Shown here: positions 19,191 through 37,002 of the stretch, piece after piece
How the letters are laid out: each line of letters begins with the position of its first letter
Position numbering within the stretch: the first letter of the stretch is position 1
NCBI GenBank assembly: GCA_900469625.1
Contig: UBXV01000019.1
Location: forward strand, 1 to 64,000
Length of the DNA stretch: 64,000 nucleotides
Direction of reading: 5' to 3'
Source of the DNA: Hyphomicrobiales bacterium
GTDB lineage: Bacteria; Pseudomonadota; Alphaproteobacteria; Rhizobiales; Rhizobiaceae
Translations under genes and position numbers: made by a program
The notes under the pieces: model-generated
What the model was told of the DNA's origin: nothing
The model's input: the letters and a program-made list of their open reading frames with translations, nothing else
Database searches by the model: none

Positions 19191-19250
19191 ATTGCCGGAT
19201 GCATGCCCGGGCCACCCGTGCAACTCTGCCCACAAGACAAAGGGCTCCCG

Positions 19251-22200
19251 ATGAACGACATGCTGAAGACCACCCCAGACCTTTCCATCGACCAGGCGGC
19301 CGCACTGCTGAAGCAGCATTACAGCCTATCCGGCACGCTCTCGCTGCTTGCGAGCGAACGCGACCAGAACTTCAAGGTCGAGACGACAGATGGCGCCACC
19401 TTCATCCTGAAGATCGTCAACGGTGCCGAACCGGAGATCGAAAGCGATTTCCAGACGGCGCTGCTTGGCCACGTCGCAGCCTTTGCCGGCGATTTGCCGG
19501 TGCCGCACATCGTTCCGACCGCGGCGGGGACCAGCCTTGCCGAAACCACCAGCCCGCATGGCGTGCGCCACCGGCTGCGTCTCGTCAGCTGGGTGTCGGG
19601 CCTGCCGCTTGCCGAAACCGGCCGCAGCGCCGCAGCCCTCCAGTCTCTCGGCCAGATGCTCGGCCGCTTCGACGCCTCGCTGAAGGGCTTCATGCATCCG
19701 GGCGCGCTGCGCGACCTCGACTGGGACATCCGCAAGGCCGGCCGCTCTGCTGACAGGCTGGGCCACATCGCGGATCGCGAAGATCGGGCACTGCTGGAGC
19801 GCTTCCTTGCCCGCTTTACAGAAACAGTCGAGCCGAAGCTGGCAACACTGCGCTCGGCCGTCATCCACAACGATGCCAATGACTGGAACGTGCTGGTCGA
19901 CAAGTCGGACCATGACCGCATCTCCGGCCTGATCGATTTCGGCGACGCGCTCTACGCGCCCGTCATCGCCGAAGTCGCGATCGCCGCCGCCTATGCCGGT
20001 CTCGATCATGCCGATCCGATCGGCGCCACCGCCGCCATCGCCCGTGGCTTTCACGCCGAATATCCGCTGCTGGAAGAAGAGGTCGACCTGCTCTTCGACC
20101 TCATCGCCATGCGGCTGGTCACTTCGGTCACCATCTCTGCCTCGCGCCGGGCGCACACGGCCGACAACCCCTATCTCGCCATCAGCGAAAAGCCGGCCTG
20201 GACGCTTCTGCGCAAGCTCGACCGGATGAACCGGCGGTTTGCGACCGCGATCCTGCGCAAGGCATGTGGCTTCGAGGCTGCACCCGGCACGCGTGGCGTT
20301 ACCAACTGGATCACCGATAACCGCAAGGCGCTAGCCCCGTTGCTGGAACGACCGGCCGCCACCTATCCGGCGGCACTCGTCCCCTATGGCGATCCCGATC
20401 ATCCGATGACGGTGAAATCCTCCGCCGAGCAGCCGGACGAAGCTCAGGCAATCTGGGAAGACTATTGCCGCGAGCATGGCGTCGACCTCGGCGTCGGCCC
20501 CTGGGGCGAGGCCCGCACGGTCTATGCCGGCGACATGTTCGTCTCGCGGCTGATCGAGAACACCCGCCGCACCCACCATCTCGGCCTAGACCTGTTCATG
20601 GCCGCCGGCACGAAGGTCTTCACCCCGATCGCCGCCACCGTCGTCAGCGTCGAGATCGAACAGGACCCACTCGGATACGGCTGCCTGATCGCCCTTCGCC
20701 ACGAGCCCGAGGGCTGCCCGCCTTTCGTGTCGCTCTGGGGCCATATGGCACATGAGGCGATGGGCCGGATCGCGGCCGGCGACCGTCTCGAAGCCGGCGC
20801 GCTCGTCGGCGAAATGGGTGCACCGAAGGAAAACGGCGGCTGGGCGCCACATCTGCATCTCCAGCTCTCCGTCGACACCAGCCTTTCGGCCACCGAGATC
20901 CTCGGCGTCGGCGAACCGCAGTATCTCGACGTCTGGGCCGAACTTTTCCCAGACGCGCGCACCTTCGCCGGCATTGCCGATGAGTTCTATCAAAAGAGCG
21001 GCCGCGCCCATGACGAGATCGTCAAGCTGCGCCGGGAATTGCTGCTGCCGAACCTGTCGATCTCCTATGAAAAGCCGATCAAGTTCGTGCGCGGCGAAGG
21101 CGTCTGGCTGATCGACGACAGCGGTCGGGCCTATCTCGATTGCTTCAACAATGTCTGCCACATCGGACACGCCCACCCGGCCGTGGTCGAGGCCATGGCA
21201 AAGCAGGCAGCGACCCTCAACACCAACACCCGTTACCTGCACGACAACATCGTCGCCTATGCCGAGCGGCTGACGGCGACGTTGCCGAAGGAATTGACCG
21301 TTGCGGGCTTCGTTAACAGCGGCTCGGAGGCAAACAGCCTGGCGCTGCGCCTGATGCGCGCCCATACCGGCCGCGAAAACGCCGTCACGCTCGACTGGTC
21401 CTATCACGGCACGACCCAGGAGCTGATCGACATCAGCCCCTACAAGTTCCGTCGCAAGGGCGGCAAGGGCGCGAAGCCGCATGTGCATGTGGCCGCGGTT
21501 CCCGACAGCTATCGCGCGCCCGCCGACTGGCCGGCCGAAGAACACGGCAAGCGCTTTGCCGAAAGCGTCGCCGAACAGATCGCCGCCATGCAGGCCAAGG
21601 GCGAAGGCCCCGGCTTCTTCATCGCCGAATCGATCCCGAGCGTCGCCGGCCAGGTATTCCTGCCGGACGGCTACCTGAAGGAAGTTTATCGCCTCGTGCG
21701 CGAAGCCGGTGGTGTATGCATCGCCGATGAAGTCCAGGTCGGCTTCGGCCGCGTCGGCAGCCATTGGTGGGCGTTCGAGACGCAAGGGGTCGTTCCCGAC
21801 ATCGTCACCATGGGCAAGCCGATCGGCGATGGCCATCCGCTGGCCGCCGTCGTCACCACCCGCGAGGTCACCGACAGCTTCAACAACGGCATGGAATACT
21901 TCAACACCTTCGGCGGAAACCCGGTTTCCTGCGCCGTTGGCCTTGCCGTTCTTGACGTCATCGAGGGCCAGGACCTGCGCGGCAACGCGCTGGCCATCGG
22001 CAACTATCTCATCGCCTCCTTCAAGGCGATGCAGGCGCGCTACGAGGTGATCGGCGACGTGCGCGGCATGGGCCTGTTCCTCGGCATCGAACTGGTGACC
22101 GACCGCAAGACCAAGGCCCCCGCCACCGAATTTGCCCGGGCCGTCTCAAACGGCGCCCGCCAGCGCGGCGTGCTGATGGGCACCGAAGGACCGCATGACA

Positions 22201-22307
22201 ACGTCTTGAAGATGCGTCCGCCGATGATCTTCTCGAAACGCGACGCCGATCACCTGCTCGCCGTGCTCGAAGAGACGTTTGCGGATGTGAGCAAAAGGCT
22301 CGGCTAA
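19251..22307 (+). CDS. Three-domain fusion: APH-type small-molecule kinase, M23-like domain, class III PLP enzyme (copy 1)
   Basis: This 1,018-residue protein has three parts. Residues about 1-330 form an APH/hydroxylysine-kinase-like domain, with ERDQNFKV, catalytic HNDANDWN (H206, D208, N213) and IDFGD (D229). Residues about 400-570 form an M23 (LytM-type) metallopeptidase-like domain with HLGLD (H443, D447), WGH and HLH (H534, H536), so its zinc ligands look intact. Residues about 590-1018 form a class III PLP enzyme with [16 protein letters not shown] and Schiff-base K856. The last domain resembles the ammoniophospholyases ETNPPL/PHYKPL; from the literature, their bacterial homologues can be fused to the hydroxylysine-kinase homologue. 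The likely chemistry (inference) is phosphorylation of an amino-alcohol or hydroxy-amino acid, then phosphate and ammonia elimination. The M23 part is unexplained, as the protein has no signal peptide. The start at 19251 was chosen because it begins the family N-terminus. Confidence 0.85.
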
Positions 22308-22417
22308 AGGCCGAGCTCGATACCGCCGAAAAAACAGCCAGTTGGCCGGGACGCACGCGCGCCCCGGCAGCGGAGACGCATGCCTTCAAAACTGCATAAC
22401 AAGAGGAGAACAGGACC

Positions 22418-23428
22418 ATGAAATCGGCAATTCTAGCGCTTGCAGGCGCAGCACTTCTCGCCGGCACGGCGGCAAACGCCGCCACGCTCGACGTCGTCAA
22501 GGAACGCGGCGAACTTCGCTGCGGCGTCAGCCAGGGCGTGCTCGGCTTTTCCGCGCCGAACGACAAGGGCGAATGGAGCGGTTTCGACATCGACTTCTGC
22601 CGCGCTGTCGCGGCGGCCACCCTCGGCAACCCGGACAAGGTGAAATACGTGCCGCTTTCGACCAAGGAGCGCTTCACCGCGCTGCAGTCGGGCGAAGTCG
22701 ACCTTCTGTCGCGCCAGACCACCTGGACGCTGTCACGCGACACCGACCTCGGCATGAGCTTCGTTGGCGTCAACTACTATGACGGCCAGGCCTTCATGGT
22801 GCGCAACGATCTCGGGGTAAAGAGCGTCAAGGAACTCTCGGGCGCCTCCGTCTGCACGGAAACCGGCACGACCACCGAGCAGAACATGGCCGACTACTTC
22901 AGCGCCAACAACATCCAGTATCAGGTCATCGCCTTTGAAAAGCCGGACCAGACGGTCCAGGCTTTCAACACCGCGCGCTGCGACGTCTACTCGACCGACG
23001 CTTCCGCGCTTTATGCCCAGCGTCTGACGCTGAACGATCCGGACCGCTTCGTCGTGCTTCCCGAAGTCATCTCCAAGGAGCCGCTCGGCCCGGCCGTACG
23101 CCAGGGCGACGAGCAATGGTTCAAGGTCGTGCGCTGGACCCTGTTCGCGATGATCGAAGCCGAAGAGCTGGGGATCACCAAGGACACCGCAGCCAAGCTG
23201 CAGGAAAGCGGCAACGTCGGCCAGAAGCGCTTCCTCGGCATCGACAACGAAGCGGGCAAGGCGCTGGGCCTCGGCCCGACCTGGGCCTTCCAGGCGATCT
23301 CCGCCGTCGGCAACTACGGCGAAGTCTTCGAAAAGCACCTGGGCAAGGACAGCGCGCTCAAGATCGACCGCGGCCTCAACAAGCTCTGGAGCCAGGGCGG
23401 CCTGATGTACGCGCCGCCGGCGCGCTGA
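22418..23428 (+). CDS. Periplasmic amino-acid ABC transporter substrate-binding protein (AapJ-like)
   Basis: This 336-residue protein has a signal peptide (about 1-22, ending ANAA) and an SBP_bac_3 domain. The ERGELRCGVSQGVLGFS start, the SGFDIDFCRAVAAA motif and a TGTTTEQNMADYF stretch are hallmarks of the general L-amino-acid binding proteins AapJ/BztA. AGAGGAG precedes the ATG. No permease or ATPase follows; a terminator ends the transcript. It may therefore feed an Aap-type transporter encoded elsewhere. It sits 110 bases after the fusion gene in the same direction, which suggests that uptake and breakdown of one compound are coupled. Confidence 0.9.
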   Translation: MKSAILALAGAALLAGTAANAATLDVVKERGELRCGVSQGVLGFSAPNDKGEWSGFDIDFCRAVAAATLGNPDKVKYVPLSTKERFTALQSGEVDLLSRQTTWTLSRDTDLGMSFVGVNYYDGQAFMVRNDLGVKSVKELSGASVCTETGTTTEQNMADYFSANNIQYQVIAFEKPDQTVQAFNTARCDVYSTDASALYAQRLTLNDPDRFVVLPEVISKEPLGPAVRQGDEQWFKVVRWTLFAMIEAEELGITKDTAAKLQESGNVGQKRFLGIDNEAGKALGLGPTWAFQAISAVGNYGEVFEKHLGKDSALKIDRGLNKLWSQGGLMYAPPAR

Positions 23429-23495
23429 TCGCATTCAAATCCGGAGACGGTCTCTCATCCGGACGTGCACCAACCACAAGACCAGCCAACCAACT

Positions 23496-23522
23496 CGCCG
23501 CGGCCCTCACCGCGGCGTTTTT
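23496..23522 (+). terminator. Rho-independent terminator after the binding-protein gene
   Basis: A perfect stem CGCCGCGG/CCGCGGCG with a 6-base loop is followed by TTTTTC. Confidence 0.85.
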
Positions 23523-23931: not shown

Positions 23932-24819
23932 TTAAAGCTTGACGATCGTCTTGCGCGCCAGCAGGCCCTGCGGCGCGAAGAGCAGCACGCCGATGACAAG
24001 CAGGATGGTGAAGGCATCGCGGTAGCTGAGCAGGCTTTCCGGCAGGTAGGCCTGCAGGAACACCTCGATGAAGCCGAGCAGGAAGCCACCGGCAACGGCG
24101 CCCGACAAGCTGCCGAGCCCGCCGATGATCGCGGCGATGAACGCCTTCAGGACCGGGAGGAAGCCCATCAGCGGATCGACGCTGCCGCGCTGCGCCACCC
24201 AGAGAATGCCGGCAACACCGGCAAGCAGCCCGGAAATGGCAAAGGCTGTCGCCACAACAGCGTTGGCGCGAATGCCCATCAGCCGGACGATGGCGAAGTC
24301 CTCGGACGCCGCCCGCATGGCGCGGCCGAGAACGGTGGTGCGCAGGAAGAGATTAAGACCGACGAGCATGATGACGGTGACGAGAATCGACGTGCCCTGG
24401 ATCAGGCCGAGATGAAGCCCACCGATCTCGATCGTGCCGGAAAAGCTCTCCGGCATCGGCACGGGCTTCGGCCGCGCCGAGATGAAATTCTGGAAAATGA
24501 CGCGCAGGATGGCGCTGACGGCAAAGCTGGTCAGAAGCAGCGTCGTACCGCTGGCGCCGCGCACGGGCCGGAAGGCGACGCGCTCCATCAGCATGGCAAG
24601 GACGACCGCGATCATCAGCGCGCCGAAGACGGCGAGCGGGAACGGCAGGCCGAGCAAAAGCGCAAAGCACAGGCCATAGCCGGCCGCCGTCATCAGCTCG
24701 CCATGGGCGAAGTTGATCAGCCCCATGATCGAGAAGACGACCGCAAGCCCGAGCGCGAGAAGCGCGTAGGTGCCACCGAGGCTGAGCGCGTTGACCAGCT
24801 GCTGCAGGAACATGTCCAT
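23932..24819 (-). CDS. livH: Branched-chain-amino-acid-type ABC transporter permease (LivH family)
   Basis: This 295-residue integral membrane protein has about eight hydrophobic segments and the LivH-type features NALSLGGTYALLALGLAVVF, NFAHGELM and a late GGLGSLSGAVAGG loop. It is the last gene of a leftward set: fused LivMG, substrate-binding protein, LivF, LivH. AGAGGT precedes the ATG. With LivM it would form the membrane channel of a HAAT-family importer. The substrate need not be Leu/Ile/Val; the neighbouring catabolic operon points to an amide or amino compound. Confidence 0.88.
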   Translation of the reverse strand: MDMFLQQLVNALSLGGTYALLALGLAVVFSIMGLINFAHGELMTAAGYGLCFALLLGLPFPLAVFGALMIAVVLAMLMERVAFRPVRGASGTTLLLTSFAVSAILRVIFQNFISARPKPVPMPESFSGTIEIGGLHLGLIQGTSILVTVIMLVGLNLFLRTTVLGRAMRAASEDFAIVRLMGIRANAVVATAFAISGLLAGVAGILWVAQRGSVDPLMGFLPVLKAFIAAIIGGLGSLSGAVAGGFLLGFIEVFLQAYLPESLLSYRDAFTILLVIGVLLFAPQGLLARKTIVKL

Positions 24820-24845
24820 TGTCGTGACCTCTTGCCCGCGGGCCC

Positions 24846-25583
24846 TCAGGCGCCGAGATAGGCGCCCTGGATTTCGGTTGAATTGCGAAGCTCGGCGGCG
24901 GTGCCGGAAAGCACGATCCGGCCATTCGCCATGACATAGCCGGCGTCGGCGATTTCGAGCGACAGCGCGACGTTCTGCTCGACCAAGAGGATCGTCAGGC
25001 CCTTCTGGCGCAGGCCGGCGATCAGGTCGAAGATCAGGTCGACCACCTGCGGCGCGAGCCCGAGCGACGGTTCATCCAGCAGAAGAAGGTCGGGCGACGA
25101 CATCATCGAACGGGCAATCGCCAGCATCTGCTGTTCGCCGCCCGAGAGCGATCCGGCCTTCTGGCCGAGACGTTCCCTCAGGATCGGGAAGCGCGACAGC
25201 ATGTCTTCGCGAACTTCGGAGATGACGCCGCGCGCCTTGTGCATGGCGCCACCGAGCAGCAGGTGTTCGTCGACCGTCAGGCTTGGGAAGATGCGCCGCC
25301 CCTCCGGCGTTAGCGTCATGCCGAGGCGGACGATCTGTTCGGGTGGCAGACCGGAAATGTCGCGGCCGTTGAAGGAAACCTGACCCGCCTTCTTGGCGGC
25401 CAGCCCCACCAGGGCGTTCAGCGTCGAACTCTTGCCGGCGCCGTTTGCCCCGAGCAACGTGACGATCTGCCCCTTGCCGACGGTGAGATCGACGCCCTTC
25501 AGCGCCTCGACGGCACCATAGGCGACCTTGAGGCCGCTGACCTCGAGCAAGGGCTTCTGCGCTGGAATTTCACTCATCATCAT
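24846..25583 (-). CDS. livF: ABC transporter ATP-binding protein (LivF family)
   Basis: This 245-residue ATPase has Walker A GANGAGKSS, signature LSGGEQQMLAIAR and Walker B LLLLDEPS, with the LivF-type QNVALSLEIADAGYVMANGRI near the end. Three consecutive ATG codons (25583, 25580, 25577) are possible starts; AAGGA lies upstream. It is the second ATPase of the importer, the first being fused to the LivM permease. Confidence 0.9.
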   Translation of the reverse strand: MMMSEIPAQKPLLEVSGLKVAYGAVEALKGVDLTVGKGQIVTLLGANGAGKSSTLNALVGLAAKKAGQVSFNGRDISGLPPEQIVRLGMTLTPEGRRIFPSLTVDEHLLLGGAMHKARGVISEVREDMLSRFPILRERLGQKAGSLSGGEQQMLAIARSMMSSPDLLLLDEPSLGLAPQVVDLIFDLIAGLRQKGLTILLVEQNVALSLEIADAGYVMANGRIVLSGTAAELRNSTEIQGAYLGA

Positions 25584-25676
25584 CGGGGCAAAGTCCTTGC
25601 CATGGATTGCGAGGCGGCCTTGCAAGCGGCCGGCACGACCCCCGGCACATCGCCGGAGATCGCAAGGGGCGAGGGA

Positions 25677-26840
25677 TCAGGGAGCCGGAATGTCGGCTGC
25701 CGCCGGAACGCCCTGGCTGATCAGTTCGCGGTTGCCGCCGCCGATGCGCACCAGCGACACCGAGCGCAGCGGCATGCCCTGCGTGCCGGCGTAGCTGATC
25801 GGGCCGGTCACGCCCTGGACGTTTTCAAGCCCGGCGATGGCGTTGCGGATGGCGACGGGGTCGATGCTGTTGGCTTCGGTCACGGCTGCGTCGATCACCT
25901 TGCCGAGGTCGTAGCCGTTGGCGATGTAGACCGTGTCCGGATCCTGGCCGAACTTCTCCTTGTACTTGACGTTGAAGTCGGCAAGCGGGCTGCCTTCGCT
26001 GGCAAAGCCGGCGGTGGTGAACACCACGCCGTCGACGGTCGCGCCAAGGCCGAAGGTCGTCGGTGAATCGATGCCGTCGCTGCCGAGGATCGGGATGGTG
26101 ACGCCGGCGCCGCGCAGCTGGCGGATGAATGCCGGGAAATCGGGCTCATAGGCGGCGGTCATGATGACGTCGGGCGCCGGGTTCATCGCCTTGATCTTGG
26201 TGACCTCGGCGCCAAAATCCTGCTGGCCCATGCTGAAAGTGCCCTCGCCCAGAAGCTCGCCGCCCTTGGCCTTGAAGGCAACACCGAAGTACTCCGGAAG
26301 CTTCAGCGTATAGGCGCTGTCGGGAGACTTCAGGATATAGGCCTTCTTGTAGCCCTTCTCGACCGCGTAGGTCGCAAGCACCGAAGCCTGGACGTTGTCG
26401 GCCGGATAGTTTCCGAACATGTAGTCGCCGACGGCAAGCGGCATGGTCGGGGTCGTCGCGCAGAACGAGAAGGCCGGGATCTGGGCGGCCTGCGTCACCT
26501 GGCCGGCGGCGATCGACGGATCGGCATCGCAGGGCGTGATCATGATCTTGACGCCCTGGTCGACCAGCTCCTGCGCCACCAGCGCCGTCTGGGCCGCGTC
26601 CGAGCGGGTGTCCTTGGCCACGAGCTTGATCGGGAACTTGCCGGCGGCTCCCCCGGCCGCGTTGATTTCCTCGACCGCCATTTCCAGACCCTTCAGAGAC
26701 GGCTGGTCATAGGGAGCAAGGCCGCCGGTCTGTGCGGTGGCAAGACCGATGACCAGGTCTTCGGCAAGCGCTGGCAGCGGCGACAGCGCGAAGCCGCCTA
26801 GGATGGTGGTGAGGCACAGTGTCCTGAGATTGGATTTCAT
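25677..26840 (-). CDS. ABC transporter substrate-binding protein (LivJ/Peripla_BP_6 type)
   Basis: This 387-residue periplasmic binding protein has a signal peptide (MKSNLRTLC...ALSPLPALAE) and a type I periplasmic fold (DLVIGLATAQTGGLAPYDQP, GLEMAVEEINAAGG, DTRSDAAQTALVAQELV). ATG 26840 is preceded by GGGAG; the frame extends upstream but that part is not peptide-like. It lies 34 bases after the fused LivMG gene and serves the same importer. The ligand is not predictable from sequence alone. Confidence 0.9.
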   Translation of the reverse strand: MKSNLRTLCLTTILGGFALSPLPALAEDLVIGLATAQTGGLAPYDQPSLKGLEMAVEEINAAGGAAGKFPIKLVAKDTRSDAAQTALVAQELVDQGVKIMITPCDADPSIAAGQVTQAAQIPAFSFCATTPTMPLAVGDYMFGNYPADNVQASVLATYAVEKGYKKAYILKSPDSAYTLKLPEYFGVAFKAKGGELLGEGTFSMGQQDFGAEVTKIKAMNPAPDVIMTAAYEPDFPAFIRQLRGAGVTIPILGSDGIDSPTTFGLGATVDGVVFTTAGFASEGSPLADFNVKYKEKFGQDPDTVYIANGYDLGKVIDAAVTEANSIDPVAIRNAIAGLENVQGVTGPISYAGTQGMPLRSVSLVRIGGGNRELISQGVPAAADIPAP

Positions 26841-26874
26841 CGGTAAGCTCCCTCTTTCTGATTTCGTTGGCTGA

Positions 26875-28749: not shown

Positions 28750-28842
28750 CTGCATTCCCCCGAATTGTCGACCCGCCGTCTATTTTTGGCTCGGGCCTGT
28801 TCCCGAAATGAAAGTTATCCCATCTCGATCAAATGTCAATCT

Positions 28843-28856
28843 TGTTTCAAAAAACA
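28843..28856. promoter_or_regulatory. Small dyad in the transporter/RpiR divergent promoter region
   Basis: TGTTT/AAACA with a 4-base spacer lies in the AT-rich 180 bases between livMG and rpiR. RpiR-family proteins bind short AT-rich dyads, so this is a weak operator candidate. Confidence 0.3.
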
Positions 28857-28928
28857 TTCTCTGCTAGCAATTATGTAACAAAAATTAGAAATCGGGATGC
28901 AAGCCATCATTTTTGGGAGGCGGAAATC

Positions 28929-29810
28929 GTGGCAATCCGGGATCGACTGACAGACGGGACCATCACCTTCACGCGATCGGAACTGAAGATCGTGCGGCAG
29001 TTGCTGGCAAACTATCCGGCCGCGGGATTGAATACCGTTGCCCATCTGGCCTCCTCGGCCGGGGTGAGCAATCCGACCGTGGTGCGCTTCGCCAACACGC
29101 TCGGCTTCGAAGGTTATCCGGAGTTTCAAAAGGCGCTGCTCGGCGAAGTGCAGGAGCGCATGAGCTCGCCGCTGTCGATGCTCGACGAGCGGCGGCCGTC
29201 GCTGGAGCAGGAGAATTTCTACCAGTATTTCCTGCGGGCCAGCATCCATGCGCTCGAATCCTCGATGCAGATGCTGCCGTCGGAGGATTTCGAGGCGGCC
29301 GTCGATGCGGCGGCAGACATGAGTGCCCGCGCGCACTGCCTCGGCGGCCGTTTCAGCGGCTTTCTCGCCGGCCTGCTCTGGTCGCACATGAAGCAGCTGA
29401 GGGGCGATACCCGCTGGATCAACGGCAGCCAGGCCGATCAGGTCGACCAGCTCGTCGATCTCGGCAAGCGCGACGTGCTGTTCGTCTACGACTATCGCCG
29501 CTACCAGAACGACACCATCCGCTTCGCCAGGGAGGCCGCCGCCCAGGGCGCGCGCATCGTGCTGTTCACCGACCGCTGGCTGTCGCCGATCGCCGATTTT
29601 GCCACCGTCACGCTGACAGCACCCGTCGACACGGTCTCGCCCTATGACACGATGGTGCCGGCGATCGCCCAGACGGAAGCCCTGATCGCGGCGCTGACCG
29701 CCCGCCTCGCCACCCAATCGCGCGCCCGCATCGAGAAGATGGAGGAGCTGCGCCGTGGCTACGCCATCACCGAAGACGCCCTCAACCCGAACGTCGACGA
29801 CGGCCGCTGA
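28929..29810 (+). CDS. RpiR/MurR-family transcriptional regulator
   Basis: This 293-residue regulator has an N-terminal RpiR helix-turn-helix (TFTRSELKIVRQLLANYP...VAHLASSAGVSNPTVVRFANTLGFEGYPEFQKAL) and a C-terminal SIS-type ligand-binding domain (about 125-265). The start is placed at GTG 28929 because GGGAGG lies eight bases upstream; the frame itself is open from 28833. It is divergent from the LivMG-type transporter and heads the hydrolase, ligase, amidohydrolase, aminotransferase operon, so it most likely controls both. SIS domains usually bind phosphosugars, but several RpiR proteins near amino-compound pathways bind other ligands. Confidence 0.88.
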   Translation: MAIRDRLTDGTITFTRSELKIVRQLLANYPAAGLNTVAHLASSAGVSNPTVVRFANTLGFEGYPEFQKALLGEVQERMSSPLSMLDERRPSLEQENFYQYFLRASIHALESSMQMLPSEDFEAAVDAAADMSARAHCLGGRFSGFLAGLLWSHMKQLRGDTRWINGSQADQVDQLVDLGKRDVLFVYDYRRYQNDTIRFAREAAAQGARIVLFTDRWLSPIADFATVTLTAPVDTVSPYDTMVPAIAQTEALIAALTARLATQSRARIEKMEELRRGYAITEDALNPNVDDGR

Positions 29811-29852
29811 GACCTTGCCGCAAGGCGAAAACCGACAACCGAGGAGAACCCA

Positions 29853-30515
29853 ATGAGTGCCGTTACAGTGAAGGTCGGGGACGACATGCTGAGACGCGAC
29901 AGCGACTATGAGCGCGGCCGCACGTCCGTCTTGTTCGTCGACATGCAGCGCATCTGGTGCGAACCCAATCTCGACCCGACCCACCCGCAGGACGCCGACA
30001 GCTATTATCACAAACGGCTGCGCCAGACGGTGATCCCCAACCAGGTCCGCATCCTGGAGGCCGCCCGCAACTCCGGCTGCGAGGTACTGCACACCATCAT
30101 CGAGAGCCTGACGCTCGACGGCCGTGACCGCTCGCTCGACCACAAGCTGTCCGACATGCATGTGCCCAAGGGCTCGCCCGAAGGCCAGGTCATTCCGGAA
30201 CTCGCGCCGATCGACAATGAGATCGTGCTGCCGAAGACCTCGTCCGGCGTCTTCAACTCGACCAACATCGACTACATCCTGCGCAACCTCAACACCCGCT
30301 ACCTCATCATCGCCGGCGTCATCACCGACCAGTGCGTCGACATGGCCGTGCGCGATGCCGCCGACCGCGGTTACCTCGTCACCGTCGTCAACGACGCCTG
30401 CGCGACCTACAGCCCCGAGCGTCACGAAGGCGCCCTTCGCGCCTATTCCGGCTACTGCTGGACCACCGACACCGACACCGTCGTCAGCCGCATCAGGGGC
30501 CTGCGTCAGGCCTGA
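29853..30515 (+). CDS. Isochorismatase-fold cysteine hydrolase
   Basis: This 220-residue hydrolase has the family catalytic triad: Asp30 (VLFVDMQ), Lys128 (LPKTSSGVF) and Cys161 (GVITDQCVD). Members include N-carbamoylsarcosine amidase, nicotinamidase, ureidoacrylate amidase RutB and biuret hydrolase; they cleave amides or ureides. GAGGAG precedes the ATG. It is the first structural gene after rpiR, with 42 bases between, and so probably acts on an amide substrate or intermediate of this operon. The exact substrate is unknown. Confidence 0.88.
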   Translation: MSAVTVKVGDDMLRRDSDYERGRTSVLFVDMQRIWCEPNLDPTHPQDADSYYHKRLRQTVIPNQVRILEAARNSGCEVLHTIIESLTLDGRDRSLDHKLSDMHVPKGSPEGQVIPELAPIDNEIVLPKTSSGVFNSTNIDYILRNLNTRYLIIAGVITDQCVDMAVRDAADRGYLVTVVNDACATYSPERHEGALRAYSGYCWTTDTDTVVSRIRGLRQA

Positions 30516-30551
30516 ACCATTGCCGAAGATCTTGAGACAAGAGGGGAATTC

Positions 30552-31898
30552 ATGACCGAGACCAGCAACGGCAAGGCTCACTCCGCACTGACGGAGCTCG
30601 CGACCTTCGTCACCACCGACATCGCCGGCATCACCCGCGGCCGCAGCTTCGCCGCCTCGCAGATCGACGATTACCTGCGCAAGGGCGTCGGCTGGGTGCC
30701 GGCCAACCTGGCGCTGACGCCCTTTGACCAGATCGCAGAGAACAACCCCTGGGGGTCATCCGGCGACCTCCGGCTGATGGCCGATCCGGCAAGCAAGGCG
30801 CGGGTCACCTGCCTGCCCGACGTCACGCCGCTGCATTTCTATCATTCCGATATCACCGACCTCAAAGGCGATCCCTGGGAGTGCTGCGTGCGCAGTTTCC
30901 TCAAGCGCACGCTTGAGGACTTCGAGCGCGAGGCGGGGCTAAAGGTCATCTCCGCCGTCGAGCAGGAATTCCAGCTGCTCGGCGTCGACTGGCCGGACGC
31001 GCCGTCCTTCGGCCTGCGTGCCGAGCGCCGTGCCGACCCCTTCGGCCCGCTGTTGATGACGGCGCTGCAGGAGGCGGGCGCCGAGCCGGAAATGTTCCTG
31101 CCGGAATATGGCAAAGACCAGTTCGAGATCACTTGCCGACCCGCCGATGCGCTGACGGCTGCCGACCGAGGCGCGACGATCCGCGCCATCACCAAGGAAG
31201 TGGCAGCCCTCTTCGGCTGGAATGCCAGCTTCGCGCCGAAGACCAGCGCGAACGGCGTCGGCAACGGCGTGCACCTGCATGTCAGCTTCACCGACCTTGA
31301 CGGCAACCCCGTAACCTTCGACGCCTCGCGCCCCGGCCGCCTGTCCAAGGTCGCCGGTTCGTTTGCCGCCGGCGTCATCCGCCACCTGCCGGCGCTCACC
31401 GCCTTCACCGCGCCGTCGGTGCTGTCCTACATGCGGCTGGTTCCGCATCACTGGAGCGCCGCCTACACCTGCCTCGGCGAGAAGAACCGCGAGGCCACAC
31501 TTCGGATCTGCCCGACGCTCGATCTTCCCGGCAGCAACCCGGCCAAGCAGTTCAACATGGAGTATCGCGCCGCCGACGCCTGCGCCAGCCCGCATCTGTC
31601 GCTGGCCGTGCTCTTGAAAGCCGGCCTCGAAGGCATCCGCGCCGGGCTGGAACAGCCGCCGCTGATCAACTCTGACCCGTCGGATTTTTCCGAGGCGGAC
31701 CAGAAGAAGCTCGGCATCCGCCGCCTGCCCGCAAGCCTGCCGGAAGCGCTGGAAACGCTTGCCGCGGACGAGGTCGTCACGGGCTGGTTCGCCAAGGATT
31801 TCCTCGATTGCTACGTCGCGATGAAGCGCAAGGAAATCGACCTCGTCGACGGCCTTTCACCCGACGAACTCTGCGCCCGCTACGCGGCCGTCTACTGA
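30552..31898 (+). CDS. Glutamine-synthetase-family ligase (gamma-glutamyl-amine ligase-like)
   Basis: This 448-residue member of the glutamine synthetase superfamily has the catalytic EQEFQL stretch, NGVHLHVSF (ammonia/ATP-site His), and NREATLRICP (phosphate/glutamate Arg). Its N-terminal beta-grasp (FVTTDIAGITRGRS) is of the PuuA/GlnA3 type rather than classical GlnA, so it more likely couples glutamate (or a related acid) to an amine at the cost of ATP. AGAGGGG precedes the start. It lies between an amide hydrolase and an N-formylglutamate-amidohydrolase-like gene, which supports a ligation, transformation, hydrolysis route (inference, by analogy with the Puu putrescine pathway). Confidence 0.86.
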   Translation: MTETSNGKAHSALTELATFVTTDIAGITRGRSFAASQIDDYLRKGVGWVPANLALTPFDQIAENNPWGSSGDLRLMADPASKARVTCLPDVTPLHFYHSDITDLKGDPWECCVRSFLKRTLEDFEREAGLKVISAVEQEFQLLGVDWPDAPSFGLRAERRADPFGPLLMTALQEAGAEPEMFLPEYGKDQFEITCRPADALTAADRGATIRAITKEVAALFGWNASFAPKTSANGVGNGVHLHVSFTDLDGNPVTFDASRPGRLSKVAGSFAAGVIRHLPALTAFTAPSVLSYMRLVPHHWSAAYTCLGEKNREATLRICPTLDLPGSNPAKQFNMEYRAADACASPHLSLAVLLKAGLEGIRAGLEQPPLINSDPSDFSEADQKKLGIRRLPASLPEALETLAADEVVTGWFAKDFLDCYVAMKRKEIDLVDGLSPDELCARYAAVY

Positions 31899-31913
31899 TA
31901 CGGATAGGCTCCC

Positions 31914-32738
31914 ATGACTTCGACAATGGCCACCAAGAGCCCCGACGACCGACGCGGCCGACATGACGCCCGCCAGCCGCTGCTGGCGATCGACGAGCCG
32001 CCGCCCTATGCGGTGTTCAACCCGGACGGCACTTCGCCGTTCCTGCTCCTGTGCGAACATGCGTCCAACCGCATGCCGCGCGCACTCGGCGACATGGGCC
32101 TGCCCGAACACGAGCGCCAGCGCCACATCGCCTGGGACATCGGTGCGCTGGCGCTCGCCCAGCACTTGAGCCTCAGCCTCGACGCGCCGCTGTTCTTCAC
32201 CAACTATTCCAGGCTGGTGATCGACTGCAACCGTCCGCTTTCGGCGCCGTCCTTCATCCCGGAAGTCAGCGAAACAACCGAGATCCCGGCCAACCGGGAT
32301 CTCCCGGACGCAGAGCGCCAGCAGCGCGTCGACACGCTGTTCAAGCCCTTTGCCGATGCCGTAACCCGGCGCCTCAACCTGCTCGAAGCGAATGGCCAAA
32401 AGCCGTTCGTGGTCGGTGTACACAGTTTCACGCCCGTCTATTTCGGCAAGCCGCGGCCATGGCAGGCGGGCATTCTCTACCGCGACGCCGGGGCCTTCGC
32501 GCAGTCGCTGATCCGCGGTTTGAGCCAGGAAAACGAGCTGACGATCGGCGACAACGAGCCTTACAACATCCATCCGGACGAGGACTACACAGTCCCGGTC
32601 CATGCCGACGCCCGCAAACTGCCGGGTGTGTTGATCGAGGTCAGGCATGACCTGATCGACACCGATGTCGGCGTTGCCGCCTGGGGCGAGCGGCTCACCC
32701 GTTGTCTGAACACGAGCCTTGAGGAGTGCCGTCGTTGA
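31914..32738 (+). CDS. N-formylglutamate amidohydrolase-family protein
   Basis: This 274-residue FGase-domain protein has LLLCEHASNRMP, HIAWDIGA, LVIDCNRP, VVGVHSFTPVY and IEVRHDLI, matching the HutG-like zinc amidohydrolases that release glutamate from N-formylglutamate. Although a hut operon lies nearby, this gene belongs to the RpiR operon, 15 bases after the ligase and overlapping the aminotransferase start. It therefore probably hydrolyses an N-acyl- or gamma-glutamyl-type intermediate of that pathway. A role in histidine breakdown is an alternative: with HutF in place, histidine breakdown goes through formylglutamate and needs such an enzyme. Confidence 0.85.
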   Translation: MTSTMATKSPDDRRGRHDARQPLLAIDEPPPYAVFNPDGTSPFLLLCEHASNRMPRALGDMGLPEHERQRHIAWDIGALALAQHLSLSLDAPLFFTNYSRLVIDCNRPLSAPSFIPEVSETTEIPANRDLPDAERQQRVDTLFKPFADAVTRRLNLLEANGQKPFVVGVHSFTPVYFGKPRPWQAGILYRDAGAFAQSLIRGLSQENELTIGDNEPYNIHPDEDYTVPVHADARKLPGVLIEVRHDLIDTDVGVAAWGERLTRCLNTSLEECRR

Positions 32739-34054
32739 GCGAAAGCCTCTACGAAAGGGACGGAGAGGCCATTGCCGGCCTGCAGAAGCTGCGCTTCTTT
32801 CCGCTCGCCATCGCCGGCGGCCATGGCCCGCGCCTCGTGGAGGAGAGCGGCCGCGAACTGATCGACCTCTCCGGCGCCTGGGGTGCCGCAAGCCTCGGCT
32901 ATGGCCACCCTGCCCTCGTCGAGGCGGTGTCGCGCGCCGTCGCCAATCCGGCGGGCGCCAGCGTCCTGTCGGCCGCCAATGCGCCGGCAACCGCCCTTGC
33001 CGAAAAACTGCTCGGCCTTTTTCCCGGCAACGGGCGAAACAAGGTGTGGTTCGGCCATTCCGGCTCCGATGCCAACGAGGCCGTCTTCCGGGCGATCGCC
33101 AAGGCGACCGGCCGCACCGGCGTCATCTCCTTCGTCGGCGCCTATCACGGCTGCACCACCGGTTCCATGGCATTCTCCGGCCATAGCGTCCAGGCGGGCG
33201 CGGCCAAGGCCGACGGCCTGGTCCTGTTGCCCTACCCCGACCCCTTCAGGCCCTATGAGGGCGACGCCAGCGGCGACGCGATCCTCGACCTCCTGAAACA
33301 GCAGTTCGCAACGACGGCGCCACCCGAAAAGATCGGCTGCGCCTTCATCGAGCCGATCCAGTCGGACGGCGGGTTGATCGTGCCGCCGAAGGGGTTCTTC
33401 CAGAAGTTCGCCGATCTCTGCAGGCAACACGGCATCCTCGTCGTCTGCGACGAGGTGAAGGTCGGACTTGGCCGCAGCGGCAAGATGCACTGCTTCGAGC
33501 ACGAGGATTTCGTTCCAGATATCCTGACGATCGGCAAGGGTCTCGGCGGCGGCCTGCCGCTGTCGGCGGCGATCGGACCGGCCGAGATCATGGACTGCGC
33601 CACCGCCTTTGCGATGCAGACGCTGCACGGCAACCCGGTCTCGGCATCGGCTGGACTGGCCGTGCTCGAAACCATCGACCGGGAGGGCCTGGCCGAGGCC
33701 GCACGCCGCAAGGGCGAACGCCTGCGCGAAGGTCTGCGGCAGATGGCCGAACGCCACGACCTGATCGGCGATGTGCGCGGACGCGGTCTTGCCACGGGCG
33801 TGGAACTGATCGCCGATCACAGTGACCGGACACCGGCGTCACGAGAAACCGCCAAGCTGATCTACCGCGCCTATGAGCTTGGCCTCGTCGTCTACTATGT
33901 CGGCATGAACTCCAACGTTTTGGAGATGACCCCACCGCTAACGATCTCGGATGCGGAGATCGACCAGGCGCTCGCCATTCTCGACCGCGCCCTTGGCGAT
34001 GTGGCAGCCGGCCGGGTCTCCGACGCTGTGCTTGCCAACTTCGCCGGCTGGTAA
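32735..34054 (+). CDS. Class III PLP-dependent aminotransferase
   Basis: This enzyme of about 439 residues has the class III fold features GSDANEAVFRAIAKATGR, CDEVKVGLGRSGK and the PLP lysine in ILTIGKGLGGGLPLSA. Such enzymes transaminate omega-amino groups (GABA, beta-alanine, ornithine-like) or act as glutamate-1-semialdehyde-type mutases. The start is probably TTG 32735, eight bases after GAGGAG and overlapping the previous stop (TTGA); a GTG at 32726 is the alternative. It is the last gene of the RpiR operon. Its stop lies 20 bases from the convergent stop of fusion copy 2. Confidence 0.87.
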   Translation: MSESLYERDGEAIAGLQKLRFFPLAIAGGHGPRLVEESGRELIDLSGAWGAASLGYGHPALVEAVSRAVANPAGASVLSAANAPATALAEKLLGLFPGNGRNKVWFGHSGSDANEAVFRAIAKATGRTGVISFVGAYHGCTTGSMAFSGHSVQAGAAKADGLVLLPYPDPFRPYEGDASGDAILDLLKQQFATTAPPEKIGCAFIEPIQSDGGLIVPPKGFFQKFADLCRQHGILVVCDEVKVGLGRSGKMHCFEHEDFVPDILTIGKGLGGGLPLSAAIGPAEIMDCATAFAMQTLHGNPVSASAGLAVLETIDREGLAEAARRKGERLREGLRQMAERHDLIGDVRGRGLATGVELIADHSDRTPASRETAKLIYRAYELGLVVYYVGMNSNVLEMTPPLTISDAEIDQALAILDRALGDVAAGRVSDAVLANFAGW

Positions 34055-34083
34055 GATCGGCACGGGGGCGTTGCCTACCAGCC
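34046..34083. terminator. Inverted repeat over two convergent stop codons
   Basis: GGCTGGTA (34046-34053) and TACCAGCC (34076-34083) pair across a 22-base loop. They arise from the 'Gly-Trp-stop' ends of both convergent genes. There is no U-run, so a termination role is only possible. Confidence 0.3.
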
Positions 34084-37002
34084 CTCGTCCAGCACCCGCG
34101 TCAGCATGTCGGCGAAGAAGTCGGCGCTCTCGCGGCTAAGGCAGAGCGGCGGCTTGATCTTCAAGACGTTGAGGTGATCGCCGGTCGGCTGCATGATGAC
34201 CCCGAGCTCCAGCAGGCGGTCGCAGATGGCGGCCGTCTCCTCGCTCGCCGGCTCCAGCGTGTCGCGATCGCGCACGAATTCGACACCGAGATAAAGCCCC
34301 ATGCCGTGCACCGCGCCGACGATCGGAAACCGTTGCACAAGCGCTTCGAGCCTTGTCTTGAGATAGCCGCCGACGACACGGGCATTGTCCTGCAGCTTCT
34401 CTTCTTCGATGAGATCGAGCACAGTCTGGCCGACGACGGAGCTGACCGGGCTGCCGCCGGAGGACGAGAAGAAATAGCCTTCCTTCTCCAGCGCATCGGC
34501 AATCTCGCGCCTGGCGATGACGGCACCGAGCGGGTGGCCGTTGCCCATGCCCTTGGCGATGGTGATGATATCCGGCACCACGCCCTGTTCCTCGAAACCC
34601 CAGAAATAGTCACCGAGCCTGCCATAGCCGACCTGCACCTCGTCGGCGATGCATACGCCGCCGCGCTGCCGGACCATGGCATAGACCGCATCGAGATAGC
34701 CCTTCGGCAATGGGATGCCGCCGGCATTGCCATAGACCGGTTCGCAGATGAAGCCGGCAAGGCCTTGGCTCCCCTCTTCCAGCGCGCGCAGCTTAGTCGC
34801 CACCGACCGCACATAGTTGTCGGTGGTGTCGGCGCCGCGGAATTGTCCCCGATAGGTGTTGGGCGCGACCACCGCATGCACCCAGTCGGGCCGCGTTTCG
34901 AGCGCCTGCGGGTTGTCGGCGATCGAGGTCGAGACGGCGTCGCTCGCCACCGTCCAGCCGTGATAGGCCTCTAGCAGGCTGACGACATTGCGCTCGCCGG
35001 AAAAGGCCCAGGCCAGCCGCAAGGCGAGGTCGTTCGCCTCCGAGCCGCTGTTGACCAGGAAGACCGTGTCGAGACCGTCGGGCGCAAGCGCTGCCAGCCG
35101 CTCTGAAAATTCCGCGACCGAGGCGTAGTGAAATCGCGAATTGGTGTTGAGCAGCGACCATTGCCGACCGACCGCCGCCGCCAGCCGCGGATGGCCATGG
35201 CCGAGGATGGTGACGTTGTTGACCATGTCGAGATAGGCCCTGCCCTCGACGTCGAACAGATGTTCCTTCCAGCCGCGCTCGATCTGCGGCGGCGCGCGGT
35301 AGTAGTTCTTCTGCGGTCTGGCGAAATGCTGCTGGCGGCGATCGAGCAGGTCGGCCGAATGCGGCGCCGGCGCATCGCAGTTAAAGCCGAGAATGCCGGC
35401 CGGCGACGGGCAGAGCTCCTGCCAGGCGTCTGCCTGATGCGCGGGAGCAAACAGCGGCGGGATCAGCCCCGGTTCGCGGCAGAGCTGCACCCGCATGAGG
35501 CCGAGCCCGTGCCCAGCCTCGCTCACGAGACCGATGGGCGTACCGGCGGCAACCGTCTCATCCGCGCCCTCCGGCGGTTCGAGACCGGTAAGATGCAGGA
35601 CCGCCGCTGGACCGCTCAGCACCATCCGCCCGTCGTGCCATTCGGTCCGGCCGGCAAAGGGCGCCCGGACGACGGCACCCACGGGCAGGCAGAGATCCAC
35701 ATGCAGCGCAAAAGTTGATCTCGGTCGCGGCGACCGAAGCGCGCTCTCGGTCAGCCTGTACTCGCCATACCGCGTCGAGGCCATGCCGATTGCATGGGCC
35801 GCCGTCTGCAGCAGCGAGGCCGGAAGGCCTTCGTGCTGCCAGCGTTCCTCCGGAAGCAGCGGGCTCAGAATGGAAAGATCGATCTGGCGCACGCCGGCCG
35901 GCTCGATGTCGACGAGTTGCCCCTCGCCCAGCACCGGTGCCGCCTTTTCAGGCACGGCGTCGACGGCGCGCAGGATCGCCCGCTGCATCAGCGCCGGCGG
36001 CACGGAAACGGCAACGTCGAAGATCTCACGCTCATGGGCGGCGTTGCCGCTGACATAGGCATTGTCCGGATCGATGGCGAGCTGCTGCTGCGAACTGGCG
36101 ACGAGGATGGCCGCGCGCGCGACGATCAGCGGCCACAGCGCCTTCAGCTCGCTCTCCTCGAGGGGACACACCGCATGGAAGGCGCGCACGGCCGGCAGGA
36201 TGAAAAGAGCGTCACCATCGGCATGGTGCAACAGCGAGGCGCAGGTGACGGCCAGTTCGGCAACGAGCCAGCCTTTGAGGATATCGCCGAAATCGATGAC
36301 GCTGTCCGGCATCGGTCGGCCTGCGGCATCCGGTTGCCCGACGACATTGTCATCGGTGACGTCGTGATGAATCGCCTGCACGCGCAGCTCGGCCGTCAGG
36401 GGCTGAAGCCGGCGCATGGCCGAGACCATCGCTTCGGCGATGCGCTTCTTCAGGCCCTCGTCGTTCATCGCCGCCAGCAGATGCAGGGCGACCGGGGCTG
36501 CGTGCCTCAGATCCCATTGCAGCTCGCGGTCGAGCCCCGGATGGTCGAAATCGCGCAGCGCCACCGCCAGCCGTCCGGCGATATCGCCGAGGGCCGCGAC
36601 CGTGTCCGCCGTCAGGTGTTTGCGCTGCGTCAACGGCACGCCATCGAGATAGGTCAGAAGACGAACGCGATAGTCCTGACCACGCACCTTCACATCGATG
36701 ATATCGCGGCCGTCGAGATTGCGCACCACTTGAGGCGCCCTGACGGCGCCGGACTGCCGGGCGAGGTGAAGCAAGGCTGCGTTCTGTGCCTCCAGCTCCT
36801 GCAGGTCATAGGCGGCCCGGCAGATCTTCAGCACGAAGCGCGCCTCGCCGGTGTCGATCCGGAAATTTCGGTCCTGCTGGCTGCCCAGCTCGCTCAACGC
36901 GCCCGACAGGCCGAAGTGCTCCAAGAGAATGCGCGCGGCGTCCTCGGGCGTGACATCTGGCCTTGGCAATTCCGTGCGAAGCTTCAGCGCGTCTTCAACC
37001 AT
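34075..37002 (-). CDS. Three-domain fusion: APH-type kinase, degenerate M23-like domain, class III PLP enzyme (copy 2)
   Basis: This 975-residue paralogue has the same layout as the gene at 19251. The kinase domain keeps HHDVTDDN (H213, D214, N219) and IDFGD (D237). The PLP domain (about 570-975) keeps SGSEAND, ADEVQVGYGR and K817 in IAKGMGNGHPLG. The middle domain (about 425-530) keeps the beta-sheet pattern but has lost the metal site: the first His/Asp pair reads HVD rather than HxxxD, and the HLH of copy 1 is replaced by MRV (503-505). GGAGG lies seven bases before the ATG. It is 63 bases downstream of hutC on the same strand, so it is probably under HutC control. The substrate is probably a phosphorylatable amino-alcohol or hydroxy-amino acid (inference). 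Confidence 0.85.
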   Translation of the reverse strand: MVEDALKLRTELPRPDVTPEDAARILLEHFGLSGALSELGSQQDRNFRIDTGEARFVLKICRAAYDLQELEAQNAALLHLARQSGAVRAPQVVRNLDGRDIIDVKVRGQDYRVRLLTYLDGVPLTQRKHLTADTVAALGDIAGRLAVALRDFDHPGLDRELQWDLRHAAPVALHLLAAMNDEGLKKRIAEAMVSAMRRLQPLTAELRVQAIHHDVTDDNVVGQPDAAGRPMPDSVIDFGDILKGWLVAELAVTCASLLHHADGDALFILPAVRAFHAVCPLEESELKALWPLIVARAAILVASSQQQLAIDPDNAYVSGNAAHEREIFDVAVSVPPALMQRAILRAVDAVPEKAAPVLGEGQLVDIEPAGVRQIDLSILSPLLPEERWQHEGLPASLLQTAAHAIGMASTRYGEYRLTESALRSPRPRSTFALHVDLCLPVGAVVRAPFAGRTEWHDGRMVLSGPAAVLHLTGLEPPEGADETVAAGTPIGLVSEAGHGLGLMRVQLCREPGLIPPLFAPAHQADAWQELCPSPAGILGFNCDAPAPHSADLLDRRQQHFARPQKNYYRAPPQIERGWKEHLFDVEGRAYLDMVNNVTILGHGHPRLAAAVGRQWSLLNTNSRFHYASVAEFSERLAALAPDGLDTVFLVNSGSEANDLALRLAWAFSGERNVVSLLEAYHGWTVASDAVSTSIADNPQALETRPDWVHAVVAPNTYRGQFRGADTTDNYVRSVATKLRALEEGSQGLAGFICEPVYGNAGGIPLPKGYLDAVYAMVRQRGGVCIADEVQVGYGRLGDYFWGFEEQGVVPDIITIAKGMGNGHPLGAVIARREIADALEKEGYFFSSSGGSPVSSVVGQTVLDLIEEEKLQDNARVVGGYLKTRLEALVQRFPIVGAVHGMGLYLGVEFVRDRDTLEPASEETAAICDRLLELGVIMQPTGDHLNVLKIKPPLCLSRESADFFADMLTRVLDEGW

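What the first reader, a model, noticed from the sequence alone, without database searches (positions are those of the whole stretch)
19251..37002. Two paralogous kinase-M23-PLP enzyme fusions within 18 kb
The proteins at 19251-22307 and 34075-37002 share the order APH/hydroxylysine-kinase-like, M23-like, class III PLP (ETNPPL/PHYKPL-like). Kinase plus phospholyase in one chain suggests a channelled route: phosphorylate a hydroxy-amino compound, then remove phosphate and ammonia. The M23-like module in the middle of cytosolic catabolic enzymes has no accepted role. The copies have different regulators (Lrp and HutC), so they probably serve different substrates.
Basis: partly seen in the sequence, partly recalled or inferred. 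Interest (0 to 1): 0.75.

Follow-up and report, generated by a model that had tools for sequence, protein, structure and literature searches.

The report
Kinase–M23–phospholyase fusion enzyme paralogues
A soil bacterium carries giant single-chain enzymes that most likely attach a phosphate to an amino-alcohol-type nutrient and then strip off phosphate and ammonia; the puzzling protease-like middle part has an intact, strictly conserved metal site in one copy and a dead one in the other.

Summary
P0001 (19251-22307, +) is APH kinase–M23–class III PLP; P0002 (34075-37002, minus strand) has the same order, but its M23-fold middle has lost metal ligands and is invisible to Pfam. Both belong to catalogued, functionally unassigned NCBIfam families (PRK06148, PRK06149).

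By tree and residues P0001's PLP part is a phospholyase: it groups with solved human ETNPPL and 5g4i, away from other class III enzymes. P0002 is sister to that clade and keeps 12 of 22 lyase-specific residues. Kinase catalytic residues are intact in both. Split, directly fused and kinase-less forms exist, supporting kinase-then-lyase.

Unusual: five M23 metal-site residues are complete in 93 of 93 P0001-type proteins and in 0 of 22 P0002-type. A third copy elsewhere in the genome sits in an operon with amino-acid and sugar importers, an SDR and glycosidases. A divergent Lrp gene accompanies P0001 in 77 of 80 loci; close HutC linkage of P0002 was seen only in Ensifer/Sinorhizobium. The DNA between the copies is a catabolic module that recurs beside such fusions in some other genera, but mostly stands alone.

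Substrate guess: a basic hydroxy-amino acid such as 5-hydroxylysine. Unproven.

The parts
18688..19305 (-). Lrp/AsnC-family regulator, divergent from P0001 (true start probably inside: the cluster's median length is 152 aa)
   Evidence: Pfam HTH_24, HTH_AsnC-type and AsnC_trans_reg; divergent Lrp in 77 of 80 loci
19251..22307 (+). P0001, kinase–M23–phospholyase fusion, 1018 aa
19344..20066 (+). P0001 APH-fold kinase domain (residues 32-272), catalytic H206, D208, N213, D229
   Evidence: Pfam APH; residues invariant in 93 of 93 rows with a kinase part and in 26 of 26 kinases
20574..20876 (+). P0001 M23/LytM domain (residues 442-542), metal-site residues H443, D447, H498, H534, H536
   Evidence: Pfam, invariance, model pLDDT 92 and Foldseek
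21075..22274 (+). P0001 PLP domain (residues 609-1008), phospholyase type, PLP lysine K856
   Evidence: best solved relatives 6tor 466 bits and 5g4i 351 bits, next 197; tree; signature columns
22418..23428 (+). substrate-binding protein, nearest to the lysine/arginine/ornithine type
   Evidence: SBP_bac_3; best NCBIfam model TIGR01096, 201 bits, below its 256-bit cut-off; downstream of the fusion in 50 of 80 loci
23932..28755 (-). Liv-type ABC importer (LivH, LivF, LivK, LivM-LivG fused)
   Evidence: recurs beside fusions in some other genera
28833..34054 (+). RpiR, isochorismatase-family hydrolase, glutamine-synthetase-like ligase, N-formylglutamate-amidohydrolase-like, class III PLP enzyme close to 5m46
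   Evidence: recurs beside fusions and on its own
34075..37002 (-). P0002, kinase–degenerate M23–PLP fusion, 975 aa
34090..35286 (-). P0002 PLP domain (residues 573-971), sister to the phospholyase clade
35341..35946 (-). P0002 middle region (residues 353-554): M23 fold without a complete metal site
36208..36888 (-). P0002 APH-fold kinase domain (residues 39-265)
37066..37815 (-). HutC-type GntR/UTRA regulator upstream of P0002
   Evidence: TIGR02018 above cut-off

Best explanation
Both proteins are cytosolic catabolic enzymes for a hydroxy-amine. The N-terminal APH-fold domain phosphorylates the hydroxyl next to the amino carbon with ATP or GTP. The C-terminal PLP domain then binds the amine and eliminates phosphate, and the enamine hydrolyses to aldehyde plus ammonia, as in human hydroxylysine kinase + PHYKPL or in ETNPPL. 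In P0001 the middle M23 domain keeps its whole metal site and is most likely a working amide/peptide hydrolase acting next to the kinase–lyase couple, for instance freeing the hydroxy-amine from a conjugate. In P0002 the same domain is a dead scaffold. For P0001 and for the third copy a basic hydroxy-amino acid (5-hydroxylysine or a near relative) is the most likely substrate; for the third copy probably after removal of sugars. Shown: domain order, catalytic and metal residues, lyase phylogeny, gene partners. Inferred: cytosolic place, reaction order, channelling, M23 activity, substrates.
For: Solved phospholyases are by far the nearest structures. A tree of 44 PLP domains separates 37 rows (fusions, split lyases, ETNPPL, 5g4i) from 7 other class III rows at 100/100, and the P0001-type rows sit in one clade (95/98) with both solved phospholyases. 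Twenty-two lyase-specific columns: all 22 in P0001 (itself one of the 30 rows that define them), 12 in P0002, including N595, N596, N619, R623, W801, K948. Kinase catalytic residues invariant in both groups. Related kinase and lyase also occur as adjacent genes, as a direct fusion without M23 (L092) and as M23–PLP without kinase (L090). The five metal-site residues are complete in 93 of 93 P0001-group rows that have the domain (80 of the 95 rows are close relatives) and are all among the 25 invariant columns in a 30-row alignment whose members fall to 23% identity. A binding protein nearest to the lysine/arginine/ornithine type accompanies P0001 and, independently, the third copy. The third copy's operon adds an SDR, a UgpC-type ABC ATPase with sugar-type binding protein and permeases, an MGH1-like glycosidase and a beta-galactosidase, or in L188 a GH1. 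An aldehyde dehydrogenase lies about 6 kb from the split pair.
Against: No activity was measured and the substrate is a guess from neighbours; the TIGR01096 matches are below that model's cut-off, and the SBP gene follows the P0001-type fusion in only 50 of 80 loci. The third copy's operon is shared by its orthologues (59-99% in seven loci) but by none of the ten more distant relatives of it in the same call. P0002 falls outside the ETNPPL+5g4i clade and has AKG, not GKP, at the PLP lysine, so it may do another reaction. The module beside P0001 has no obvious place in a hydroxylysine route and mostly occurs without the fusion. I found no precedent for an M23 domain between cytosolic enzymes. 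The kinase-less M23–PLP protein shows that the M23 and lyase parts can go without this kinase. The tree tool warned of long branches, 5g4i among them.
Confidence: 0.65

Rival explanations
1. The PLP domains are ordinary class III aminotransferases (as the automatic annotation suggests) and the kinase phosphorylates something unrelated.
For: Where the listed plasmid records carry an annotation it reads 'aminotransferase class III-fold pyridoxal phosphate-dependent enzyme' and PRK06149 is named 'aminotransferase'; P0002 has an AKG motif at the PLP lysine and its third-best solved match is dialkylglycine decarboxylase.
Against: Tree split of 100/100 from 7 other class III rows (two solved, five untested genome rows) with ETNPPL and 5g4i on the fusion side; lyase-specific columns; kinase repeatedly paired with this lyase.
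Confidence: 0.12
2. P0001 is a lyase couple but P0002 has drifted to another reaction (for instance transamination, decarboxylation or a lyase of another substrate class), with its M23 domain only a spacer.
For: P0002-type PLP domains form their own 100/100 branch outside the ETNPPL/5g4i clade; P0002 lacks 10 of 22 lyase-specific residues; no complete metal site in 22 of 22; neighbours differ from those of P0001.
Against: N595, N596, N619, R623, W801 and K948 are kept; the kinase is intact and groups with the other triple-fusion kinases at 96/89; one origin of all triple fusions is not rejected, p-AU 0.065.
Confidence: 0.3
3. The substrate is ethanolamine or a simple amino-alcohol, not a basic hydroxy-amino acid.
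For: The closest solved relative of both PLP domains is human ethanolamine-phosphate phospho-lyase.
Against: Lrp regulator and lysine/arginine/ornithine-like binding protein beside P0001; amino-acid ABC importer and glycosidases with the third copy. Human PHYKPL was not in my comparison, so nearness to ETNPPL does not separate the two.
Confidence: 0.25
4. The M23 domain is a purely structural linker in all copies.
For: It is absent or dead in several forms (P0002-type; direct fusion L092), and some LytM domains are non-catalytic regulators (EnvC, an activator of amidases, is among the fold hits).
Against: The five metal-site residues are complete in 93 of 93 P0001-group rows with the domain, although most of the domain varies.
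Confidence: 0.2

Closest known systems
Human hydroxylysine kinase (HYKK) with 5-phosphohydroxylysine phospho-lyase (PHYKPL)
   Same: APH-type kinase followed by a class III PLP phospholyase on a hydroxy-amino acid (recalled; the paper, Veiga-da-Cunha 2012, was seen only as a reference and in passing mention in PMC8154272, and is not held)
   Different: Separate proteins, no M23 domain. I recall, unverified, that bacterial kinase–aminotransferase fusions were noted in that work.
Ethanolamine-phosphate phospho-lyase ETNPPL (6tor) and Arthrobacter phospholyase (5g4i/5g4j; organism recalled)
   Same: PLP domain of P0001: 466 and 351 bits, all 22 lyase-specific columns
   Different: Single-domain enzymes; substrate of the window proteins unknown
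NCBIfam PRK06148 (NF004799, 'hypothetical protein') and PRK06149 (NF004800, 'aminotransferase')
   Same: P0001 and P0002 score far above the curated cut-offs over full length
   Different: These models give no pathway or substrate and their names do not tell live from dead M23 sites
M23/LytM metallopeptidases (lysostaphin, EnpA, ShyA, Csd1/Csd2)
   Same: Fold of both middle domains; metal-site residues in P0001
   Different: Those are mostly exported and act on peptidoglycan (recalled); here the domain lies between enzyme domains of cytosolic type, and in P0002 it is dead

Membership tests
PRK06148 (NF004799) | full-length score above the curated cut-off of 1128 bits | tested here: met
   P0001 1656 bits over residues 1-1015
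PRK06149 (NF004800) | full-length score above the curated cut-off of 973 bits | tested here: met
   P0002 1559 bits over residues 3-975
class III PLP phospholyase (ETNPPL/PHYKPL/5g4i type), for P0001 | groups with solved phospholyases, apart from other class III enzymes | tested here: met
   fork 95/98 with 6tor and 5g4i; 37 v 7 rows split at 100/100
class III PLP phospholyase (ETNPPL/PHYKPL/5g4i type), for P0002 | groups inside the clade of solved phospholyases | tested here: inconclusive
   P0002-type is sister to that clade on a long branch; one clade of all triple fusions not rejected, p-AU 0.065; 12 of 22 signature residues
class III PLP phospholyase (ETNPPL/PHYKPL/5g4i type) | releases phosphate and ammonia from a phosphorylated hydroxy-amine | not testable with these tools
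   needs an assay
hydroxylysine kinase (APH fold) | APH family with catalytic HxDxxxxN and DxGD motifs | tested here: met
   Pfam APH in both; residues invariant in 93 of 93 and 22 of 22 rows; human HYKK itself was not compared
hydroxylysine kinase (APH fold) | phosphorylates 5-hydroxylysine | not testable with these tools
   only neighbour evidence
M23 metallopeptidase, for P0001 | Pfam score above cut-off and metal site HxxxD...HxH | tested here: met
   44.2 v 28.7 bits; H443, D447, H534, H536 and H498 complete in 93 of 93
M23 metallopeptidase, for P0002 | metal site HxxxD...HxH | tested here: not met
   first H is A/P/T in 22 of 22 and the second H of HxH is never H; D and the H498 position are kept in 15 of 22 each
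M23 metallopeptidase | peptide or amide bond hydrolysis | not testable with these tools
   needs an assay
ordinary class III aminotransferase | groups with the other class III enzymes rather than with phospholyases | tested here: not met
   all 7 such rows (dialkylglycine decarboxylase, 5m46, five genome rows) lie on the other side of a 100/100 branch

The most novel reading that the evidence does not exclude
P0001 and the third copy are three-step single-chain machines for bacterial hydroxylysine salvage: the cytosolic M23 domain cuts a short (for instance glycine-containing) peptide or amide of hydroxylysine, the kinase phosphorylates it and the PLP domain turns it into 2-aminoadipate semialdehyde; in the third copy's operon an alpha-glucosidase-like enzyme and a beta-galactosidase first strip the Glc-Gal unit that hydroxylysine carries in collagen. 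It would be a peptidoglycan-type protease fold recruited into cytosolic nutrient catabolism.
Probability: 0.16. Interest if true: 0.78.

Novelty: new variant of a known kind. Interest (0 to 1): 0.5.

Why it matters
Two NCBI families called 'hypothetical protein' and 'aminotransferase' would become kinase–phospholyases, and genomes now predicted to make an aminotransferase would be re-read. A metal site kept without exception in an M23 domain set between cytosolic-type enzymes, and lost in a paralogue, makes the role of that domain directly testable by mutation. The third copy's operon gives a concrete and cheap growth test for use of glycosylated hydroxylysine by rhizobia.

Tried and rejected
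Ordinary aminotransferase: rejected on tree and residues for P0001, less firmly for P0002. HutC as a general clue to P0002's substrate: set aside, since of 15 P0002-type loci fetched from other genomes only two (L156, L157) carry a close HutC beside it and one more (L162) a 33% match; some of the 15 end at contig ends. Hydroxylysine as a reading of the Liv/glutamine-synthetase/isochorismatase module: left open, because the module mostly stands without the fusion.

I saw titles and starts of abstracts of the listed papers, passages of PMC8154272 and PMC12542648, and one table line of PMC8249566, where a Mycoplasma lipoprotein is tagged PRK06148. Nothing that I saw describes these fusions; most listed papers were not opened and the library lacks most subscription papers, so absence in print is not claimed. 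The S. meliloti locus tags searched were recalled, not derived from a call. pSymB of strain 1021 has no usable gene table here.

Structural second look (VIA) was not available. The substrate of P0002, and the role of the module between the genes, stay unexplained. Rows dropped: 139 fusion ORFs were reduced to 117 (95 P0001-group, 22 P0002-group) by identical C-terminal 400 residues; two of the 95 have no M23 part (the direct fusion L092, and L142, which I judge a frame artefact) and two no kinase part (L090 and L142); alignments A1 and A2 hold 30 of 40 and 20 of 21 chosen rows.

Full report
What is there. The window is from a rhizobial genome of 6.5 Mb whose nearest named relatives are Ensifer/Sinorhizobium (94% for P0001). 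P0001 (19251-22307, plus) has an APH kinase domain, an M23 domain and a class III PLP domain; P0002 (34075-37002) has the same order but lies on the minus strand, and Pfam sees no M23 in it. Both belong to curated but functionally unassigned families, PRK06148 and PRK06149, with scores far above the cut-offs. The same genome holds a third fusion at C35 (42% identical to P0001) and a split pair at C42: an APH-type kinase gene next to a lyase gene; that kinase is only distantly related (29 bits; very long branch). All 16 genomes of the genus that were searched hold a P0001-type and a third-copy-type protein; in one of them the P0001 orthologue lies in two frames. Further out the families are patchy: PRK06149 over its cut-off in 12 of 121 genomes of the family, PRK06148 in 8 of 299 of the phylum; neither rang in the 14 control genomes.

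The PLP domain. For P0001 the nearest solved structures are human ETNPPL (466 bits) and the phospholyase 5g4i (351 bits), the next is 197 bits. For P0002 they are the same two (337 and 262 bits), but dialkylglycine decarboxylase follows at 212. In a tree of 44 PLP domains all 37 fusion, split-lyase and solved phospholyase rows are split at 100/100 from 7 other class III rows (two solved, five untested genome rows); P0001-type, third-copy and split rows share a clade with ETNPPL and 5g4i at 95/98, and P0002-type rows form a separate 100/100 group beside it; the tool warned of long branches. Of 22 columns conserved in at least 90% of 30 lyase-side rows and shared by at most one of the 7 others, P0001 has all 22 (it is one of the 30) and P0002 has 12, among them N595, N596, N619, R623, W801 and K948; P0002 differs on both sides of the PLP lysine. 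So P0001 is a phospholyase by descent; P0002 probably is, with less certainty.

The kinase. The catalytic residues H206, D208, N213 and D229 are invariant in 93 of 93 P0001-group rows with a kinase part and in 22 of 22 P0002-group rows. In the kinase tree the triple fusions group together at 96/89, apart from split kinases; a single origin of triple fusions is not rejected by the PLP data (p-AU 0.065). Kinase and lyase occur as neighbouring genes, as a direct fusion without M23 (L092, 788 aa), with M23 (about 1000 aa), and one protein has M23–PLP without kinase (L090, 692 aa). This series is the strongest evidence that kinase and lyase act in one pathway.

The middle domain. P0001's is M23 by Pfam and by fold (model pLDDT 92; 52 PDB matches at E up to 0.001, the 50 listed being largely M23/LytM proteins). 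H443, D447, H498, H534 and H536 are all present in 93 of the 93 P0001-group rows that have the domain. Eighty of the 95 rows of that group are close relatives from one scan, so the better measure is the 30-row alignment whose members fall to 23% identity: all five are among its 25 invariant columns. P0002's domain is homologous (98.1%, E 7.8e-14) and M23-like in fold (model pLDDT 85.6; five matches at E up to 0.001), but no P0002-type row has the full set: the first H is replaced in 22 of 22 and the last H in 22 of 22 (16 times by R), while D and the H498 position survive in 15 of 22 each. A live metal site in one paralogue and a dead one in the other is the most unusual fact here. That it hydrolyses an amide or peptide is inference.

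Gene partners. A divergent Lrp gene is next to the fusion in 77 of 80 loci; the three exceptions are Nitratireductor, where the fusion instead follows Liv-transporter, FGase-like and isochorismatase-like genes on the same strand. The lysine/arginine/ornithine-like binding protein follows in 50 of 80, is not found within 1.5 kb in 29, and one locus is cut there. In seven of the 80 the P0002 orthologue is directly next door, as in S. meliloti Ak57: Lrp, fusion, binding protein, P0002 orthologue, HutC, hutF, transporter, histidine ammonia-lyase. In the window a 10-kb module (Liv importer, RpiR, isochorismatase, glutamine-synthetase-like, FGase-like, class III racemase-like) lies between them. At least three of its five non-transport genes also stand beside P0001-type or third-copy-type fusions in eight loci outside the genus: L064, L072, L076 (Nitratireductor), L175, L177, L217, L218 and L224; five Ensifer/Sinorhizobium loci (L009-L013) show RpiR and isochorismatase where the held DNA ends. 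That is a minority of the roughly one hundred fusion loci looked at (80 and 26, which overlap in part). The reverse search shows that the module also stands alone: of 14 of 249 genomes with the class III gene, four (the window's own, G663, G727, G760) have the fusion on the same contig within about 11 kb; of 16 loci fetched around the class III or isochorismatase gene of genomes without such linkage, 12 have several module genes and none has a fusion, two of them showing only a 30-31% match of a class III PLP enzyme to P0002.

The third copy. Its operon runs LacI, amino-acid binding protein (best NCBIfam model TIGR01096, 139 bits, below cut-off), permease, SDR, fusion, UgpC-type ATPase, sugar-type binding protein, two permeases, MGH1-like glycosidase, LacI, beta-galactosidase. 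Seven loci carry a close third copy: six (L170, L187, L193, L229, L230, L231) have the full set up to the MGH1-like gene, and five of these also the beta-galactosidase (L187 ends before it); in L188 the sugar importer is missing and a GH1 enzyme lies between permease and SDR. None of the ten more distant relatives (37-53% identical) in that call has this set. An amino-acid importer, sugar importer and glycosidases around a kinase–phospholyase point to a glycosylated hydroxy-amino compound. The known biological case is glucosyl-galactosyl-hydroxylysine (recalled). This is the boldest reading and is marked as such.

Judgement. The architecture itself is catalogued, and the kinase/phospholyase couple is known from animals (recalled; Veiga-da-Cunha 2012, not held). 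What I add is the distinction of live and dead M23 domains, the architecture series, and the operon clues to the substrate; I cannot say that none of this is in print.

Noticed in passing
window 23932-34054: A conserved catabolic module (Liv importer, RpiR, isochorismatase-family hydrolase, glutamine-synthetase-like ligase, FGase-like, class III PLP enzyme) that recurs in the order, mostly without the fusion; its pathway is unknown to me.
   Followed up: partly
window 32726-34054 (+): Class III PLP enzyme very close in the tree to solved 5m46, which I recall as an amino-caprolactam racemase; it is not a lyase-type domain.
   Followed up: partly
L090 (G037:C10:256228-258273): A 692-aa M23–PLP protein of the same family without a kinase domain, in the neighbourhood of ABC importer genes.
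   Followed up: partly
L170 (own genome C35:265501-285500): Third fusion in an operon with amino-acid and sugar importers, SDR, glycosidase and beta-galactosidase.
   Followed up: partly
L171 (own genome C42:33501-53500): Split kinase and lyase genes with a UPF0261 protein, IclR regulator, amino-acid permease and aldehyde dehydrogenase nearby.
   Followed up: partly
G765:C16:96557-99611: The P0001 orthologue of one genome of the genus lies in two frames, broken near residue 624.
   Followed up: no
window 35794-39321 (+): A 1175-aa open frame antisense to part of P0002; its 3' part is at the place of hutF in S. meliloti Ak57, the rest is probably not coding.
   Followed up: no
L158, L166, L167: A gene with formyltransferase and ACT domains (scanned in L158 only, the others by similarity; probably formyltetrahydrofolate deformylase) beside P0002-type fusions; may hint at a methylated substrate.
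   Followed up: no
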